Below, piece by piece: positions 12,871-46,197 of a stretch of DNA of 64,000 nucleotides (positions are counted from its first letter, which is position 1; each line of letters starts with the position of its first letter). A program made the translations under genes and the position numbers. Source of the stretch: Ramlibacter tataouinensis TTB310 (lineage in GTDB: Bacteria; Pseudomonadota; Gammaproteobacteria; Burkholderiales; Burkholderiaceae_C); NCBI RefSeq assembly GCF_000215705.1, contig NC_015677.1, positions 3,980,001-4,044,000 of the forward strand, given 5' to 3'. The notes below the pieces were generated by a model, which did not search any database, was not told where the DNA came from, and saw only the letters and a list, made by a program, of their open reading frames with translations.

Positions 12871-13524
12871 TCAGCGGCAGGGCCGCAGGGTCGCGCCGCC
12901 CAGGGTGGTGCGCAGTTCGTCCAGACGCGGTCGCAGCAGCTCGTCCACGGCCGGCAGCCGCAGCGCCACCCCGTTCAGCTCGGGCCGCTCCTGCACCACC
13001 CGGGCAGTGCGCACGCCGCGCCGGGCCAGCAGGTCCAGCGCGCGCTCGGCGGCCGCCTGCGTTCCATAGCCGCCCAGGGACAGCCCTGGCTCCAGCGCTT
13101 GGTTGGCCAGCGGCTCGAAGCTCACACCCAGCTGGCGCAGTTCGGCCTTCTTGCGTTCCACGCCATCGGGCGCCGGGTACCTGCCCATGTAGACGATCCA
13201 GCGGCCCGGCTCGATCGCGGGGTCCAGGCTCCAGCTGCCGGCGGGCCAGGCGGCCAGCGCGGGGCGCAGCGTGCCGGCCAGCGCGTCGTCCAGCGGGCCG
13301 GCCTGCAGGCACTCGCTGGGCCGGGCGATCACCACCACGGTCTCCAGCCGCGCCAGGTCCTCGGCCGACACGATGCGCACGGCATCGGGCCGGATCTGCT
13401 GCTCCAGCCGCTGCGGTTCGGACTGCTGGGCCGGCGCCAGGCCCCAGGACTGCAGCCGGCCCTCCGACCAGGCGTAGTAGGCGACATTGGCCAGCAACAG
13501 GAGCAGGACGACGAAGCGCAACAT
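12871..13524 (-). CDS. Membrane-anchored SPOR-domain-like protein
   Basis: A 217-residue protein with one N-terminal signal anchor (residues 1-20, LRFVVLLLLLANVAYYAW) and a periplasmic remainder. Residues about 107-180 look like a SPOR fold: WIVYMGRY, then KKAELRQLGV, LGGYGTQAAAERALDLL and a final ARVVQ strand. SPOR domains bind glycan strands stripped of side peptides at division sites. Two cysteines lie outside the anchor (SECLQ and the last residues, LRPCR). It begins 15 nt after birA. SPOR assignment is from pattern, not a search. Confidence 0.72.
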   Translation of the reverse strand: MLRFVVLLLLLANVAYYAWSEGRLQSWGLAPAQQSEPQRLEQQIRPDAVRIVSAEDLARLETVVVIARPSECLQAGPLDDALAGTLRPALAAWPAGSWSLDPAIEPGRWIVYMGRYPAPDGVERKKAELRQLGVSFEPLANQALEPGLSLGGYGTQAAAERALDLLARRGVRTARVVQERPELNGVALRLPAVDELLRPRLDELRTTLGGATLRPCR

Positions 13525-13539: not shown

Positions 13540-14322
13540 TCAGTCCGCCACCGACCCGGGCGGCACGGGCCTGACGCTGACTTCGGAACTGGTAACGCTT
13601 TTCATGCCGGCCGCAGTATGCACCAGCAGGGCGCCGTCGTCGCCTACGCCATGGGCCGTGCCGGCCGTGCCGTCGCTGAGCGCCACGGCGCGTTCGCGCA
13701 GCGCGTCGCGCGCGGCGTAACGGGCCTGGAAGGGCGCGAAACCGTGCTGCTCGAAGCCCTGCAAGGCCTGCACCAGCGGCAGCGCGATGCGGTCCAGGGC
13801 GGCGGCCGCGTCGGCTTCGGGCCACAGCTCGCGCAGGCTGGCCGGCGGCGTGGACAGCCCCTCGGCCGGCCGAGGCGCGATGTTGATGCCGATGCCGACC
13901 ACCGCGTAGCGCCCGGCGCCGGGCGCCGCGCCGGCGGCCGACGCCGTCTCGACCAGGATGCCGGCCAGCTTGCGGCCGTCCAGCCACAGGTCGTTGGGCC
14001 ATTTGAGCGCGATGCGCGGATGCAGGGCCTCGGCCACCGCCACGCCCACCGCCAGCGACAGCCCCGACCAGCCGGCCGGCGCATAGGGCAGGCCCAGCGA
14101 GAACGTCAATGAGTCGCCCGGGGCGCTGGCCCAGGCGCGCCCCAGCCGGCCGCGGCCCGCGGTCTGCCGCTGCGCCACCAGCAGCACGGGCTCGGCGCGG
14201 CCGGCGCGCGCCCGGCGCATCAGCTCGGTGTTGGTGGAGTCCAGCTCGGGCAGGATCTCCACGGTGAAGCCGGGCAGCCGGGGCGCCACCCGCTCCCACA
14301 CCGCTTCGGCCGGCCAGCGCAT
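13540..14322 (-). CDS. birA: Biotin--[acetyl-CoA-carboxylase] ligase
   Basis: This 260-residue enzyme activates biotin as biotinyl-AMP and transfers it to the carrier protein of acetyl-CoA carboxylase. It shows STNTELMRR, the biotinyl-AMP loop GRGRLGRAW and KWPNDLWLDGRKLAGILVE. There is no N-terminal helix-turn-helix of the E. coli kind, so it should be a ligase only and not a repressor. It lies 10 nt downstream of the SET gene and 15 nt upstream of the SPOR gene. Confidence 0.95.
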   Translation of the reverse strand: MRWPAEAVWERVAPRLPGFTVEILPELDSTNTELMRRARAGRAEPVLLVAQRQTAGRGRLGRAWASAPGDSLTFSLGLPYAPAGWSGLSLAVGVAVAEALHPRIALKWPNDLWLDGRKLAGILVETASAAGAAPGAGRYAVVGIGINIAPRPAEGLSTPPASLRELWPEADAAAALDRIALPLVQALQGFEQHGFAPFQARYAARDALRERAVALSDGTAGTAHGVGDDGALLVHTAAGMKSVTSSEVSVRPVPPGSVAD

Positions 14323-14332
14323 CCCGCCGCCC

Positions 14333-14818
14333 TCAGCGCCGGCGCTTGGGCGCCAGCAGCGTCCCGCGGCAGCCCCTGGCGCCGCACCAGCAGGGGTACT
14401 CGGCCTTGAGCTTCTTGGTGTAGGGCTCGTCGATGATCAGCCCGTAGTCGTAGTTGAGCTCCTCGCCAACGCGGATGTTGCGCAGCGCCTTGATGAAGAC
14501 GCGGCCGTCCTCCTCGTCGGCCTCGCAGTTCGGGTCGCAGGAATGGTTGATCCAGCGCGAGGAATTGCCGCCGTACAGGGCGTCGATCACCCGGTCCTCG
14601 TCGACATGGAAGTAGAAGGTGTGGTTGGGGTCGCCGGGGTCGTGCGGGTGGCGGCGCTGCGCCTCCTTCCAGCTGATGATCTCGCCCACGTATTCGATGA
14701 TGGTCTCGCCTTCGGCGATGTCCTGGACGGCGAACACGCCCTTGCCATGGATGCCCGACCGCCGGACCTGGATTTTCCGGCCGGCGCCGGCGCCGCCCCC
14801 TGCTGCTGTTGCTGGCAT
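14333..14818 (-). CDS. SET-domain protein lysine methyltransferase
   Basis: A 161-residue protein from ATG 14818; the frame is open upstream but the upstream part is not conserved-looking. It is essentially one complete SET domain: GIHGKGVFA (22-30), EYVGEIISW (42-50), RWINHSCDPNCE (88-99, the pseudoknot core), GEELNYDYG (118-126, with catalytic-type Tyr) and a post-SET CWCGARGC (143-150) whose cysteines would bind zinc. Known SET enzymes methylate lysines of proteins, classically histones. It heads the birA operon and is divergent from topB, 76 nt away. The substrate is unknown; the Lys/Ala-rich tail of the neighbouring topoisomerase is a candidate by context only. Confidence 0.93.
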   Translation of the reverse strand: MPATAAGGGAGAGRKIQVRRSGIHGKGVFAVQDIAEGETIIEYVGEIISWKEAQRRHPHDPGDPNHTFYFHVDEDRVIDALYGGNSSRWINHSCDPNCEADEEDGRVFIKALRNIRVGEELNYDYGLIIDEPYTKKLKAEYPCWCGARGCRGTLLAPKRRR

Positions 14819-14852
14819 TCGCGAAACTCTGATAAGTTGAGATGTGCACATG

Positions 14853-14876
14853 CGCGCGTACGCGTACGTACGCGCG
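14853..14876. promoter_or_regulatory. Perfect inverted repeat in the SET/topB divergent promoter region
   Basis: Two 10-bp arms, CGCGCGTACG and CGTACGCGCG, flank CGTA. It sits 34 nt upstream of the SET start and 18 nt upstream of the topB ATG, so a bound protein could control both genes. The alternating CG/TA steps could alternatively favour Z-DNA. The binding protein is unknown. Confidence 0.5.
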
Positions 14877-14894
14877 AGAGCCGAGATTGTAGAA

Positions 14895-17864
14895 ATGTCC
14901 AAGACACTCATCATTGCCGAGAAGCCTTCCGTCGCGCAGGACATCGTGCGCGCCCTCACGCCCGTGGCCGGCAAGTTCGACAAGCACGACGAGCACTTCG
15001 AGAACGACCGCTACGTGGTCACCAGCGCCGTCGGCCACCTGGTGGAGATCCAGGCGCCCGAGGAGTTCGACGTCAAGCGCGGCAAGTGGAGCTTCGCCCA
15101 CCTGCCGGTCATCCCGCCGTACTTCGACTTGAAGCCGGTGGACAAGACCAAGGGCCGGCTCAACGCCGTGGTCAAGCTGGCCAAGCGCAAGGACGTGACC
15201 GAACTGGTCAACGCCTGCGACGCGGGCCGCGAGGGCGAGCTCATCTTCCGGTTGATCGAGCAGTTCGCCGGCGGCGGCAATCCGCTGGGCAAGCCGGTGC
15301 GGCGGCTGTGGCTGCAGTCCATGACCCCCCAGGCCATCCGCGACGGCTTCGAGCAGCTGCGCACCGACCGCCAGATGGAGGGCCTGGCCTCGGCCGCGCG
15401 CTCGCGCTCCGAGGCCGACTGGCTGGTGGGCATCAACGGCACGCGCGCCATGACGGCCTTCAACTCGCGCGACGGCGGCTTCTTCCTGACCACCGTGGGC
15501 CGGGTGCAGACGCCCACGCTGGCCGTGGTGGTCGAGCGCGAGGAGCAGATCCGCAGGTTCGTCAGCCGCGACTACTGGGAGATCCACGCCAGCTTCCTGG
15601 CCGAGGCCGGCGAGTACCCGGGCAAGTGGTTCGACCCCAAGTGGAAAAAGAACCCCGACGACGCCGAGCAGAAGGCCGACCGGGTCTGGACGCTGCAGGA
15701 GGCGCAGGCCATCGCCGACGCGGTGCGCGGCAAAGCCGCCACCGTCACCGAGGAATCCAAGCCCACCACCCAGGCTTCGCCGCTGCTGTTCGACCTGACC
15801 TCGCTGCAGCGCGAGGCCAACGGCCGCTTCGGCTACTCGGCCAAGACCACGCTGGCACTGGCGCAGTCGCTGTACGAGCGCCACAAGGCGCTGACCTACC
15901 CGCGGACCGACTCGCGCGCCCTGCCCGAGGACTACCTGGGCACCGTCAAGCAGACCATGCAGATGCTGGCCGCCAGCGGCATGCGCCACCTGGCCCCGTT
16001 CGCCCAGCAGGCCATCGACGGCAACTACGTCAAGCCCACCAGGCGCGTCTTCGACAACAGCAAGGTCAGCGACCACTTCGCCATCATCCCCACGCTGCAG
16101 GCGCCCAGCGGGCTGTCGGATGCCGAGCAGAAGCTGTACGACCTGGTGGTGCGGCGCTTCCTGTCCATCTTCTTCCCCAGCGCCGAGCACCTGGTGACCA
16201 CCCGCATCAACCAGGTGGTGGGCCACCACTTCAAGACCGAGGGCAAGGTGCTGGTCAAGCCGGGCTGGCTGGCCATCTGGGGCAAGGAAGCCGACGTGGA
16301 GGGCGACGAGAACAGCAAGACGCTGGTGCCGGTGAAGCCCGGCGAGATGGTCCGCACCGAGTCGGTGGAGGCCAGGGGCCTGAAGACCCGGCCGCCCGCG
16401 CGCTACTCGGAAGCCACGCTGCTGGGCGCGATGGAGGGAGCCGGCAAGCTGGTGGAGGACGACGAGCTGCGCGAGGCCATGCAGGACAAGGGCCTGGGCA
16501 CGCCGGCCACCCGGGCCGCCATCATCGAGGGCCTGATCAACGAGAGGTACATGTTCCGCGAGGGCCGCGAGCTGATCCCCACGGCCAAGGCCTTCCAGCT
16601 GATGACGCTGCTGCGCGGGCTGGGCGTGGAGGAGCTCTCCCGCCCCGAGCTGACCGGCGAGTGGGAGTACAAGCTGGCGCAGATGGAGCGCGGCCAGTTG
16701 AGCCGCGACGCCTTCATGCAGGAGATCGCCGAGATGACGAAGCACATCGTCAAGAAGGCCAAGGAGTACGACCGCGACACCGTCCCGGGCGATTACGCCA
16801 CGCTGAAGACGCCCTGCCCCAACTGCGGCGGCGTCGTCAAGGAGAACTACCGGCGCTACAGCTGCGTCGGCCGCAAGGGCGACGGCAGCGACGCCTGCGG
16901 CTTCTCGTTCACCAAGATCCCGGCCGGCCGGGCTTTCGAGCTGCACGAGGTCGAGCAGTTCCTGCGCGACAAGCGCATCGGCCCGCTGGAGGGCTTCCGC
17001 TCCAAGGCGGGCTGGCCGTTCACCGCCGAGATCGCGCTCAAGTACGGCGAGGAAGAGAAGAACTGGAAGCTGGAGTTCGACTTCGGCGACGAGCAGGACC
17101 CGAGCGAGACCGGCGAGCTGGTGGACTTCGGCGCGCAGCAGCCGCTGGGCCCCTGCCCCAAATGCGCCGCCCGGGTGTTCGAGTTCGGCAAGAACTACGT
17201 CTGCGAGCGGTCCGTGCCCACGCCGCAGCAGCCCACCCCCAGCTGCGACTTCAAGACCGGCCAGATCATCCTGCAGCAGCCCGTCGAGCGCGAGCAGATG
17301 CAAAAGCTGCTGGCCACCGGCCGGACCGACCTGCTGGACAAGTTCGTCTCCATGCGCACGCGCCGCCCCTTCAAGGCGCGCCTGGCCTGGGACGCCGAAG
17401 CCGGCAAGGTGAATTTCGAGTTCGAGCCGCGCGAGAGCAAGTTCCCCCCGCGCAAGGGCGCGGGCGCGGCGCGGCCGGCAACGGGCAAGACCGCGCCGCG
17501 CAAAGCAGCTGTCGGCAGGAAGGCAGGCGCGGCCATTCCTGCCGACAAGGGCACTGCTGCCGCCAAGAAGGCCGCCGGCGCGAAGCCTGTGGCTGCCGCC
17601 AAGAAAGCCGCGGCACCCAAGGCACCCCGCAAGACCGGTCCCGGCCTCACGCCCAGCCCGCAGCTGGCCGCCGTGGTGGGCGCCGAGCCGGTGGCCCGCA
17701 CCGAGGTCATCAAGAAGCTGTGGGACTACATCAAGGCCAACGGCCTGCAGGATGCCGCCAACAAGCGCGCCATCAACGCCGACGCCAAGCTGGCCGCGGT
17801 GTTCGGCAAGCCACAGGTGACCATGTTCGAGCTGGCGGGCATCGTCGGCAAGCACCTGTCGTAG
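14895..17864 (+). CDS. topB: DNA topoisomerase III with H1-like tail and C-terminal SWIB domain
   Basis: A 989-residue type IA topoisomerase that passes single strands through a transient break and decatenates DNA. TOPRIM motifs are AEKPS (8-12) and DAGREGE (109-115); the catalytic tyrosine is Tyr335 in TYPRTDSR. After the core there are zinc-ribbon-like segments (CPNCGG...C...C and CPKCAA...C...C, about 640-800). Residues about 853-914 are a low-complexity Lys/Ala/Pro tail like bacterial H1-type histones, and about 915-989 form a SWIB/MDM2-type domain (LWDYIKANGLQD, ANKRAINADAKL, FGKPQVTMFEL). E. coli TopB is about 650 residues, so about 330 are extra. The start is MSKTLIIAEKPS. Confidence 0.95.
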   Translation: MSKTLIIAEKPSVAQDIVRALTPVAGKFDKHDEHFENDRYVVTSAVGHLVEIQAPEEFDVKRGKWSFAHLPVIPPYFDLKPVDKTKGRLNAVVKLAKRKDVTELVNACDAGREGELIFRLIEQFAGGGNPLGKPVRRLWLQSMTPQAIRDGFEQLRTDRQMEGLASAARSRSEADWLVGINGTRAMTAFNSRDGGFFLTTVGRVQTPTLAVVVEREEQIRRFVSRDYWEIHASFLAEAGEYPGKWFDPKWKKNPDDAEQKADRVWTLQEAQAIADAVRGKAATVTEESKPTTQASPLLFDLTSLQREANGRFGYSAKTTLALAQSLYERHKALTYPRTDSRALPEDYLGTVKQTMQMLAASGMRHLAPFAQQAIDGNYVKPTRRVFDNSKVSDHFAIIPTLQAPSGLSDAEQKLYDLVVRRFLSIFFPSAEHLVTTRINQVVGHHFKTEGKVLVKPGWLAIWGKEADVEGDENSKTLVPVKPGEMVRTESVEARGLKTRPPARYSEATLLGAMEGAGKLVEDDELREAMQDKGLGTPATRAAIIEGLINERYMFREGRELIPTAKAFQLMTLLRGLGVEELSRPELTGEWEYKLAQMERGQLSRDAFMQEIAEMTKHIVKKAKEYDRDTVPGDYATLKTPCPNCGGVVKENYRRYSCVGRKGDGSDACGFSFTKIPAGRAFELHEVEQFLRDKRIGPLEGFRSKAGWPFTAEIALKYGEEEKNWKLEFDFGDEQDPSETGELVDFGAQQPLGPCPKCAARVFEFGKNYVCERSVPTPQQPTPSCDFKTGQIILQQPVEREQMQKLLATGRTDLLDKFVSMRTRRPFKARLAWDAEAGKVNFEFEPRESKFPPRKGAGAARPATGKTAPRKAAVGRKAGAAIPADKGTAAAKKAAGAKPVAAAKKAAAPKAPRKTGPGLTPSPQLAAVVGAEPVARTEVIKKLWDYIKANGLQDAANKRAINADAKLAAVFGKPQVTMFELAGIVGKHLS

Positions 17865-18580: not shown

Positions 18581-18898
18581 TCAGGCCTTGGCGCGCGCGG
18601 CCGCGTTGCGCTTGCGCGTGGCCGCCGCCTTCCTGGCCGAGGCGGAGCGTTCTTCCGGCGAGCGTGCCGCCGAAGCGCGGCCGCCCGCCTTGCCGCCCTT
18701 CTTCGACGGGTCGGTGTTCATGGGCTTGCCGCGGCCGGAGCCGCTTTTCTTGCCACCGCCGGTCTCCTTGTTGACGGTGGCCCAGGCGCGGCGCTCGGCC
18801 TCGTCCTTACCGAGGCCGCGGCTTTCGTAGCTCTCCTCGATGTGCTCGGCCTGGCGTTTCTGCTTGTCGGTGTACGCCGATTTATCTCCACGTGGCAT
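18581..18898 (-). CDS. Small basic KGG-motif protein (annotated elsewhere as plasmid-stabilisation-like)
   Basis: A 105-residue very basic protein with a strong GGAGG ribosome site before ATG 18898. The N-terminal half (SAYTDKQKRQAEHIEESYES, then AERRAWATVNKETGGGKKSG) matches a small family common in soil proteobacteria. The C-terminal half holds PSKKGGKAGGRA and an Ala/Lys/Arg-rich end resembling histone H1-like tails. Nucleic-acid binding or a stress role is plausible but not shown. It is convergent with the flavin reductase, 10 nt away. Confidence 0.75.
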   Translation of the reverse strand: MPRGDKSAYTDKQKRQAEHIEESYESRGLGKDEAERRAWATVNKETGGGKKSGSGRGKPMNTDPSKKGGKAGGRASAARSPEERSASARKAAATRKRNAAARAKA

Positions 18899-19096
18899 GG
18901 GAACCTCCGGTGCTTGCTGCCATCGCAAAGAGTAGGGCCGCGCGCCGGCGCCGCCGCGTCGGTGGGCGGCGTTACGGCTTGTCGGCCACGTCAGGGACGC
19001 TGTCGGCGCCCTGTCCGACACGCCGGGCGCCGCGTCGCCGCGTACCCCGTTCACGGCCTTCGTTAGTGGGGCCGGATCTTCACGGAGAAAAGCACC

Positions 19097-44815: not shown

Positions 44816-46197
44816 GCAACACCCTGTACGCCCAGCGCCGCGCCCGCGTCGCCCAGCAGATCGGCCCCAACGGCATCGCGCTGATCCCCACCGCGCCGGA
44901 GCGGCCGCGCAACCGCGACACCGACTACATCTACCGGCACGACAGCTACTTCTACTACCTCACCGGCTTCGCCGAGCCGAACGCCTGGCTGGTGGTCGCC
45001 GGCGACGGCACCAGCACCCTGTTCTGCGCGCCCAAGGACCTGGAACGCGAGATCTGGGACGGCTTTCGCCTGGGCCCGGAGGCCGCGCCGGCGGCGCTGG
45101 AGGTGGATGCCGCGGTGTCGGTGGGCGAGCTGGAGGCGCAGCTGCCGCGCCTGCTGGAGAACCGCGACGCGGTCTGGTACCCGTTCGCCATCCACGAGGG
45201 GCTGGAGGCGCGCGTGGGCGGCTGGCTGAACAAGGTGCGCGCGCGCGTGCGCTACGGCGCGCTGTGCCCGCAGCAGCAGCGCGACCTGTGCGCCGTGCTG
45301 GACGAGATGCGCCTGGTCAAGGACGTGCACGAGCAGGACATCATGCGCCGCGCCGCGGCCATCAGCGCCCGCGCCCACGTGCGCGCCATGCAGACCAGCG
45401 CCCGCATGCTGCGCGAGGGCCGCGACGTGCGCGAGTACCACCTGGACGCCGAGCTGCTGCACGAGTTCCGCCTGGGCGGCTCGCAGTACCCGGCCTACGG
45501 CTCCATCGTCGCGGCGGGCCCCAACGCCTGCGTGCTGCACTACCGCGCCGACGCCGCCCCGGTGAAGGCCGGCGAGCTGGTGCTGATCGACGCCGGCTGC
45601 GAACTGGACGGCTATGCCAGCGACATCACCCGCACCTTCCCGGCCGACGGCCGCTTCAGCGGGCCGCAGCGCGCGCTGTACGACCTGGTGCTGGCCTCGC
45701 AGGATGCGGCCGTGGCGGCCACCCGCGCCGGCGCGCGCTTCAACGACCCGCACGACGCCACCGTGAAGGTGCTGGCCCAGGGCATGCTGGACCTGGGCCT
45801 GCTGGACCGCGACAAGGTCGGCGGCGTCGACGACGTGATCGAATCGCGCGCCTATTTCCAGTTCTACATGCACCGCACCGGCCACTGGCTGGGCATGGAC
45901 GTGCACGACTGCGGCAGCTACGTGGAGCCCGGCGAGGTCGGCAGCGTCAGCGAGCGCAGGGACCCGCTGTCGGGCGAGACCATCAAGAACCGCCCCAGCC
46001 GCCTGCTGCAGCCGGGCATGGTGCTGACCATCGAGCCGGGCCTGTACGTGCGCCCGGCCGAGGGCGTGCCGGAGCGCTTCCACCACATCGGCATCCGCAT
46101 CGAGGACGACGCCATCGTCACCGCCACCGGCTGCGAGCTGATCACCCGCGGCGTGCCGGTCAAGGCCGACGAGATCGAAGCGCTGATGCGCGGGTGA
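44812..46197 (+). CDS. pepP: Xaa-Pro aminopeptidase
   Basis: A 461-residue M24 metallopeptidase that removes N-terminal residues before proline. The di-manganese ligands are in IDAGCELDGYASDITRTF, HRTGHWLGMDVHD, TIEPGLYV and the final IRIEDD. The N-terminal non-catalytic domain (about 1-170) is present, as in E. coli PepP. It begins within the murU stop (ATGA). Confidence 0.96.
   Translation: MSNTLYAQRRARVAQQIGPNGIALIPTAPERPRNRDTDYIYRHDSYFYYLTGFAEPNAWLVVAGDGTSTLFCAPKDLEREIWDGFRLGPEAAPAALEVDAAVSVGELEAQLPRLLENRDAVWYPFAIHEGLEARVGGWLNKVRARVRYGALCPQQQRDLCAVLDEMRLVKDVHEQDIMRRAAAISARAHVRAMQTSARMLREGRDVREYHLDAELLHEFRLGGSQYPAYGSIVAAGPNACVLHYRADAAPVKAGELVLIDAGCELDGYASDITRTFPADGRFSGPQRALYDLVLASQDAAVAATRAGARFNDPHDATVKVLAQGMLDLGLLDRDKVGGVDDVIESRAYFQFYMHRTGHWLGMDVHDCGSYVEPGEVGSVSERRDPLSGETIKNRPSRLLQPGMVLTIEPGLYVRPAEGVPERFHHIGIRIEDDAIVTATGCELITRGVPVKADEIEALMRG

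What the first reader, a model, noticed from the sequence alone, without database searches (positions are those of the whole stretch)
14333..17864. Chromatin-like divergon: SET methyltransferase facing a topoisomerase III with H1-like tail and SWIB domain
Two adjacent, divergent genes carry eukaryote-style chromatin domains: a complete SET + post-SET enzyme and a topoisomerase III ending in a Lys/Ala histone-like tail plus SWIB. Chlamydiae are known to have a SET enzyme and SWIB-topoisomerase I fusions, but a SET/topo III-SWIB pair sharing one promoter region suggests a functional link: the SET protein may methylate lysines in the topoisomerase tail or in other H1-like proteins. The link is inferred from position only.
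Basis: partly seen in the sequence, partly recalled or inferred. Interest (0 to 1): 0.75.

Follow-up and report, generated by a model that had tools for sequence, protein, structure and literature searches.

The report
Topoisomerase–methyltransferase promoter with alternating DNA tract
Two neighbouring bacterial genes, a protein-methylating enzyme and a DNA-untangling enzyme, stay back to back across a bacterial family, and the short promoter between them carries an unusual zig-zag DNA stretch, the longest of its kind in this genome, that may let the cell sense DNA twisting.

Summary
A complete SET enzyme (14333-14818, -) and a topoisomerase III with Lys/Ala tail and SWIB domain (14895-17864, +) face away from each other across 76 bp. 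The proposed reason is weakened: 59 of 63 full-length TopBs without SWIB still have SET beside them, and in three of four genomes where SET is gone TopB keeps a Lys/Ala tail (the fourth tail has no lysine). SET is also tied to birA (125 of 127).
Runs of 20 bp or more occur in 85 of 127 SET-topB gaps, 0 of 466 other gaps from the same loci and 0 of 40 topB starts outside the family. I read it as a Z-prone, supercoiling-responsive element in a topoisomerase promoter; inferred, not shown. Whether SET methylates TopB is untested.

The parts
14333..14818 (-). SET-domain protein lysine methyltransferase with post-SET motif (161 aa, P0001)
14895..17864 (+). topB: DNA topoisomerase III, 989 aa (P0002)
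17446..17646 (+). Lys/Ala-rich H1-like linker of TopB (approximate bounds, read from the translation)
17649..17858 (+). SWIB domain of TopB (residues 919-988)
14842..14876 (.). 35-bp perfect alternating purine-pyrimidine (Z-prone) tract in the shared promoter region
14830..14838 (+). TGATAAGTT, extended -10-like box (TGnTAnnnT), candidate topB promoter reading into the tract (consensus only)
14886..14891 (-). TACAAT, -10-like box, candidate SET-birA promoter reading into the tract from the other side (consensus only)
13540..14322 (-). birA-type biotin protein ligase, 10 bp downstream of SET, probable operon partner
12871..13524 (-). SPOR-like protein (Pfam SPOR E=9.5e-4, 19.9 bits, below the 21-bit cut-off), next gene of the block

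Best explanation
A family-wide divergon: (SPOR-like-)birA-SET on one strand, topB (sometimes behind a redoxin-like gene) on the other, held together by a shared promoter region. That region consists of two face-to-face -10-like boxes with an alternating purine-pyrimidine tract between them. Proposed working: negative supercoiling, raised further by divergent transcription, drives the tract from B-form towards Z-form (or otherwise changes its twist). This changes the initially transcribed region of both promoters, so that topoisomerase III, and with it SET-birA, is expressed according to local DNA twist: a topological feedback on a topoisomerase gene. SET itself is an active, endogenous protein-lysine methyltransferase whose likeliest substrates are the cell's Lys/Ala-rich H1-like proteins (HC2-like protein, stand-alone Lys/Ala-SWIB protein, the TopB tail). 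Shown: gene order, conservation of catalytic residues, the tract and its near-uniqueness. Inferred: promoter positions, Z-transition, feedback, SET activity and all SET substrates.
For: Adjacency in 127 of 128 family pieces with both genes; birA beside SET in 125 of 127; first ORF beyond topB not conserved (largest cluster 15 of 116). Tract: only >=25-bp RY run of 4.07 Mb; >=20 bp in 85 of 127 SET-topB gaps against 0 of 466 control gaps and 0.35 expected from dinucleotide shuffles. In 135 family genomes with readable topB start, 517 of 946 genome-wide 24-bp RY windows lie within 400 bp upstream of topB; in 40 of the 59 genomes with such a tract there it is the only one. The tract stays at the SET/divergent side when a redoxin-like gene precedes topB (L116, L153, L160, L165, L173) and persists in two of four SET-less genomes (L244 21 bp, L247 17 bp). 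Flanking boxes: TTGTA in 70 of 85 (shuffle expectation 1.0), TGnTAnnnT in 39 of 85 (4.0). Simplified B-Z energetics: critical superhelix density above -0.045 in 125 of 135 topB regions against 130 of 840 random tiles of the same loci. SET: closest solved relative by sequence KMT2A (E=5.6e-27); catalytic residues conserved.
Against: 42 of 127 gaps have no RY run of 20 bp, 26 none of 16 bp. The window's own tract contains TA/AT steps, and in my B-Z model an 18-bp site at 45235 ranks above it (-0.0377 against -0.0386). The tract has strand-biased steps (TG/GT over CA/AC: 327 to 200 and 418 to 113), which a purely strand-symmetric DNA property would not predict. SET-less L245 and L246 lack a long tract (6 and 11 bp). 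24 of 135 genomes have a 24-bp RY tract only elsewhere than the 400 bp before topB, five of them in the redoxin-insert type. The genera are related, and neither shuffles nor control gaps correct for that. Promoter boxes rest on consensus only; no transcript or expression data. No substrate evidence for SET; the chlamydial NUE SET enzyme did not methylate Hc1 (passage of PMC3980110).
Confidence: 0.42

Rival explanations
1. The tract is the operator of a sequence-specific regulator (or an array of half-sites such as GTGCGCG / CGCGAGA) that controls both genes; the alternation is incidental.
For: Shared words (either strand) in the 140 bases before topB: CGCGCAC in 152, CGCGAGA in 94 of 202 gaps; similar tract sequences among relatives.
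Against: Base sequence and run length (up to 56 bp) vary while unbroken alternation is kept; a binding site would not need that.
Confidence: 0.28
2. One reading: SET is a dedicated methyltransferase of the TopB Lys/Ala tail (or of TopB-SWIB), and the pair is an enzyme-substrate module.
For: Very tight linkage; precedent that cpnSET methylates the H1-like Hc1 (passage of PMC3980110); basic tails on TopB with and without SWIB; SET-less L244 has a tail without lysine.
Against: SWIB not required: 59 of 63 SWIB-less full-length TopBs have SET beside them; three of four SET-less genomes keep 9-12 lysines in the tail; other H1-like proteins are available as substrates; NUE did not methylate Hc1.
Confidence: 0.2
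3. Old gene order without functional meaning: SET is simply a gene of the birA block and happens to abut topB; the promoter serves each gene separately.
For: birA-SET is kept in 125 of 127; birA abuts topB in four genomes that lost SET; in the outgroup stretches read, SET is usually kilobases from topB or elsewhere.
Against: The far side of topB is scrambled over the same genera, so order is not frozen in general; the shared gap carries a conserved unusual element.
Confidence: 0.25
4. The tract acts as an RNA hairpin or DNA cruciform in the 5' leader.
For: Alternating sequences are partly self-complementary; slightly lower folding energy than alternation-keeping shuffles (median z -0.3 on the topB strand, p=0.003; -0.46 on the SET strand, p=0.017).
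Against: The effect is small, and the longest inverted repeat is slightly shorter than in shuffles (median z -0.32).
Confidence: 0.08
5. SET is a secreted effector that methylates host histones.
For: Hit to the AnkI/LegAS4 effector model through its SET domain, far below that model's cut-off (42 bits, cut-off 550).
Against: Below the cut-off; present in 131 of 140 family genomes, among whose named relatives are genera that I recall as water and soil bacteria; fixed beside birA. Presence of an injection system in this genome was not tested.
Confidence: 0.03

Closest known systems
PRK14724 / NF011313 DNA topoisomerase III (full-length model reaching over the SWIB end)
   Same: Match 1-989 to 1-988 of the model, 1957 bits.
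   Different: Nothing in the protein; the fusion is already covered by a named family. New here: among 300 order genomes the fusion was seen only in the window's family (8 of its 9 genomes), and there in one of two main clades, with SWIB-less rows inside it.
Chlamydial TopA-SWIB (CtTopA)
   Same: Type IA topoisomerase ending in lysine repeats and a SWIB domain (passages of PMC12445093).
   Different: Topo I rather than topo III. [quoted passage not shown] here SWIB occurs in 112 of 300 order genomes.
cpnSET-Hc1 (Chlamydia pneumoniae) and Go1-SET-MC1-alpha (Methanosarcina mazei)
   Same: Prokaryotic SET enzymes reported to methylate their own chromosomal proteins (passages of PMC3980110).
   Different: No substrate known here; different organisms; SET sits in a birA/topB divergon.
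BtSET / LegAS4 / RomA effectors
   Same: SET catalytic core.
   Different: Below the AnkI/LegAS4 model's cut-off; found in 131 of 140 genomes of the family.
Supercoiling-sensitive promoters and Z-DNA-forming promoter elements
   Same: Alternating purine-pyrimidine tract in a promoter region, with a predicted transition near superhelix density -0.04 (energies from PMC3024258 Table 1).
   Different: A tract conserved by alternation rather than by sequence, near-unique in its genome, before a topoisomerase gene; not met among the papers listed.

Membership tests
SET-domain protein lysine methyltransferase | SET domain with SAM loop, NHxC, ELxYDY | tested here: met
   Pfam E=1.9e-25; residue counts in 132 relatives
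SET-domain protein lysine methyltransferase | Post-SET CxCx4C zinc motif | tested here: met
   C143, C145, C150 each in 131 of 132
SET-domain protein lysine methyltransferase | Methyl transfer to lysine | not testable with these tools
   needs enzyme assay or mass spectrometry
DNA topoisomerase III (PRK14724) | Score over the curated cut-off along full length | tested here: met
   1957 bits vs 1088
SWIB domain | Pfam PF02201 over gathering score | tested here: met
   88.7 bits vs 25
Dot/Icm effector AnkI/LegAS4 | Score over the equivalog cut-off | tested here: not met
   42.1 bits vs 550
HC2 histone H1-like protein (TopB tail) | PF07382 over the cut-off | tested here: not met
   TopB has no HC2 row at E<=0.001; stand-alone Lys/Ala-SWIB 30.8 bits vs 40; a separate H1-like gene at 63 bits is over the cut-off
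Z-DNA-forming element | Long alternating purine-pyrimidine tract with low B-Z cost | tested here: met
   35 bp; predicted critical superhelix density about -0.039 in a simplified model, second in the window
Z-DNA-forming element | Z-conformation formed in vivo | not testable with these tools
   needs chemical probing or Z-specific binding
Supercoiling-sensitive promoter | Transcription changes with gyrase inhibition | not testable with these tools
   no expression data at hand

The most novel reading that the evidence does not exclude
A conserved B-to-Z DNA switch built into the promoter of a topoisomerase gene: the tract between topB and SET-birA senses negative supercoiling directly, without a protein sensor. 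It sets topoisomerase III output and, in the same act, a chromatin-type methyltransferase that tunes the cell's H1-like proteins, so that DNA twist and nucleoid protein modification are controlled by one piece of DNA.
Probability: 0.25. Interest if true: 0.82.

Novelty: new variant of a known kind. Interest (0 to 1): 0.62.

Why it matters
What Z-DNA does in bacteria is a long-standing open question (general knowledge). Here is a natural, easily cloned candidate where the gene under control (a topoisomerase) acts on the variable that would be sensed (supercoiling). It recurs over one family (16 bp or more in 101 of 127 gaps) and is so rare elsewhere that it is the only tract of its size in the window's chromosome. 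It points to a housekeeping SET enzyme whose own substrate is unknown.

Tried and rejected
SET-to-SWIB link as the cause of adjacency: rejected, because 59 of 63 full-length TopBs without SWIB have SET beside them. TopB tail depends on SET: not supported in three of four SET-less genomes, but L244's tail has no lysine. At order level SET and SWIB co-occur (63 genomes with both, 18 SET only, 49 SWIB only, 170 neither; Fisher 2.7e-18), but this is uncorrected for phylogeny and I did not use it. Hairpin or cruciform reading of the tract: little support. My transition/transversion count inside against outside the tract is conditioned on the definition of the tract and I do not use it. The tract as a SET-bound feature: rejected, because it persists upstream of topB in SET-less L244 and L247, and upstream of 13 SET genes of other families the longest run is 12 bp. 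The tract as a general topB feature of the order: not supported, because 40 topB starts outside the family have none of 16 bp and the 9 outgroup topB upstreams have at most 11 bp; the other topB genes were not read. Conservation of the gene after topB: little. Paper searches listed 10 of 10, 20 of 58, 20 of 604, 15 of 813, 15 of 182, 15 of 202, 10 of 209 and 12 of 77 papers. By title and abstract start none of those listed is about SET beside topB or such a tract before topB; unlisted papers and subscription journals were not seen.
Full report
OBSERVATION. SET is 14333-14818 on the - strand (161 aa) and topB is 14895-17864 on the + strand (989 aa); the gap is 14819-14894, 76 bp. Pfam finds SET over its whole profile, and in TopB Toprim, Topoisom_bac, Toprim_Crpt and SWIB. 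NCBIfam has a full-length model that covers this topoisomerase III to its end (NF011313/PRK14724), so the fusion as such is known. The nearest solved structures to SET by sequence are KMT2A (MLL1) SET domains (best E=5.6e-27). In 132 relatives the catalytic N, H and C are invariant, and the final tyrosine and each post-SET cysteine are present in 131. The chromosome (one contig, 4,070,193 bases) has one SET and two SWIB domains. The second SWIB is in a 146-aa stand-alone protein with a Lys/Ala H1-like front half, the same build as the end of TopB. A separate 152-aa HC2-type H1-like protein is also encoded (63 bits, cut-off 40).

SURVEY OF LINKAGE. A scan of GTDB contigs with SET kept the best 80 loci. 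Titles name Ramlibacter, Limnohabitans, Rhodoferax, Curvibacter, Variovorax, Polaromonas and Pseudorhodoferax or broader Burkholderiales and proteobacterial groups, and one reads Akkermansia. topB is divergently next to SET in 76 of 80 (in a few only its first bases are on the contig), and in the other 4 SET lies within 250 bp of a contig end. For a sample not chosen by SET I took 140 genomes of the window's family (139 genera). SET is in 131 and topB in 134. I fetched the SET regions of the 130 others besides the window, seven SET-less topB regions and three extra pieces. 128 pieces carry both genes; in 127 they are divergent with 42-822 bp between the aligned starts (median 160), and in one (L144) they are 8 kb apart. 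Of the SET pieces without topB, two end at a contig edge (L118, L205), one is a different, 36%-identical SET (L243), and one genome (G316) has its SET matches split between two places (L233, L251). birA follows SET on the same strand in 125 of 127 pieces with room, and the SPOR-like gene in 106 of 120. The first ORF after topB, called crudely, falls into many families (largest cluster 15 of 116, 55 singletons). So the birA-SET-topB block is held together while its topB side is not.

WHAT THE LINK IS NOT. Of 131 TopBs read to a stop, 65 carry SWIB. 66 do not, of which 3 are short pieces. SET is beside topB in 62 of the 65 and in 59 of the 63 full-length SWIB-less ones. On a TopB tree of 128 rows, 49 SWIB-less rows form one supported clade; the 65 SWIB rows lie in a second supported group with 11 SWIB-less rows inside it (6 changes in all, shuffled mean 43; quick tree, root at the midpoint only). 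So the pair is older than, or independent of, the SWIB fusion. The Lys/Ala tail is in both groups (21-23% Lys). Four genomes have birA directly against topB with SET gone (L244-L247). L245-L247 keep 12, 10 and 9 lysines in the tail, L245 also SWIB; L244 has a 21-residue Arg/Ala tail without lysine. L244, L246 and L247 sit in one small clade that also lost SWIB. That, with L244's tail, is the only sign in favour of a SET-tail dependence. Outside the family, among 300 genomes of the order, SET is in 81, SWIB in 112 and topB in 154, counts that include 9 family genomes. No topB-SWIB fusion was seen outside the family: the SWIB hits there lie in open frames of 44-354 aa. In the 20 outgroup stretches that I read, SET lies tail to tail with topB in L260, about 4-10 kb from it in six (L254-L259), 16 kb in L266, and directly after gyrB in three small genomes of family f32 (L261, L262, L264; Pfam-confirmed for L262, placed from the SET coordinates in the other two).

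THE ELEMENT BETWEEN THE GENES. The gap holds 35 bp of unbroken purine-pyrimidine alternation (14842-14876). The next longest such runs in the window are 18 and 14 bp. A pattern search for 24 alternating bases in the whole chromosome finds this tract alone; the count for the other phase is also accounted for by it. In the 127 family gaps the longest run has a median of 24 bp: at least 16 bp in 101, at least 20 in 85, at least 24 in 64. In 466 other gaps of 60-450 bp from the same loci the numbers are 1, 0 and 0. Dinucleotide shuffles of the SET-topB gaps give 2.7, 0.35 and 0.05 of 127. The genera are related, and neither control corrects for that. Over 140 family genomes 79 have a 24-bp match somewhere. 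In the 135 with a readable topB start, 59 have one within 400 bp upstream of topB (40 of those have it nowhere else), 24 have one elsewhere only, and 52 have none; 517 of 946 windows lie in those 400 bp. Of the 24 'elsewhere' genomes, five (L116, L153, L160, L165, L173) are cases where a redoxin-like gene precedes topB, and the tract stays at the SET side, about 550-580 bp from topB. The motif WASWCPFC is read in L116, L148, L160, L165 and L173 and by eye in the printed sequence of L153; no family search was made. SET-less genomes: 21, 6, 11 and 17 bp (L244-L247). Outside the family: at most 11 bp upstream of 9 topB genes and 12 bp upstream of 13 SET genes, and at most 14 bp in 40 more topB starts.

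FLANKS AND ENERGETICS. In the 85 gaps with a tract of 20 bp or more, TTGTA (TACAA on the SET strand) follows it in 70 (1.0 expected after shuffling), and TGnTAnnnT precedes it in 39 (4.0 expected). Read as -10 boxes these face each other, with the tract in the first transcribed bases of both. That is consensus reading only. With the B-Z energies of Table 1 of PMC3024258 (passages read) and a one-run model in a 5-kb domain (stiffness and junction twist recalled), topB regions flip at a median superhelix density of -0.039, random tiles of the same loci at -0.049. 125 of 135 against 130 of 840 lie above -0.045 (Fisher 4e-72). The eight gaps over 400 bp were scanned whole, the others over 260 bp or less. 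Against this reading: in the window itself an 18-bp site at 45235 is predicted to flip slightly earlier, and the tract's steps are strand-biased. Folding of either transcript strand is only slightly better than in alternation-keeping shuffles.

READING. I commit to a topology-coupled divergent promoter for topB and SET-birA, with SET an endogenous lysine methyltransferase of H1-like proteins. The first part rests on strong sequence statistics but no experiment. The second rests on precedent (cpnSET-Hc1, Go1-SET-MC1-alpha; but NUE did not methylate Hc1; passages of PMC3980110) and on the presence of three kinds of Lys/Ala-rich proteins. Papers: of PMC3980110, PMC12445093 and PMC3024258 I saw passages returned by 'find'; all others only in search listings. 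That f1 is the Comamonadaceae in a broad sense is my inference.

Noticed in passing
L002:1282-1722 (G000 2522297): Stand-alone 146-aa protein with H1-like Lys/Ala front and SWIB end, the likely kind of source for the TopB tail-SWIB fusion (not tested by a tree).
   Followed up: partly
L274:1495-1953 (G000 3679904-3680329): HC2-type histone H1-like protein over the Pfam cut-off, just downstream of a gene that I read by eye as a ribonucleotide reductase small subunit.
   Followed up: partly
L262:2620-5614; L261; L264: In three small genomes of family f32 SET lies directly after gyrB (1 bp between in L262): a second, separate pairing of SET with a topoisomerase gene.
   Followed up: partly
L271:6777-7403: A SET protein with its own Lys/Ala H1-like N-terminal tail (HC2 E=6e-5, below cut-off) in family f13: enzyme and possible substrate in one chain.
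   Followed up: no
L165, L160, L173, L148, L116, L153 between SET and topB: A redoxin-like gene (WASWCPFC motif; by eye in L153) sits in front of topB in the same direction; the alternating tract stays at the SET side.
   Followed up: partly
window 45235-45252: 18-bp alternating GTGCGCGCGCGCGTGCGC, the best predicted Z-forming site of the window by my simple model.
   Followed up: no
window 18581-18928 (-): Small basic protein with a Lys/Ala-rich end (MPRGDKSAYTDKQ...), no Pfam match, two genes beyond topB.
   Followed up: no
L233 and L251 (G316): One genome has two partial SET matches, one beside birA and one beside topB, as if a rearrangement or misassembly broke the block inside SET.
   Followed up: no
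one search list: Many family genomes have one to three further, more distant SET genes elsewhere in the genome.
   Followed up: no
L244 TopB end: A SET-less genome whose TopB tail has seven arginines and no lysine; single case, but the kind expected if SET acted on tail lysines.
   Followed up: no
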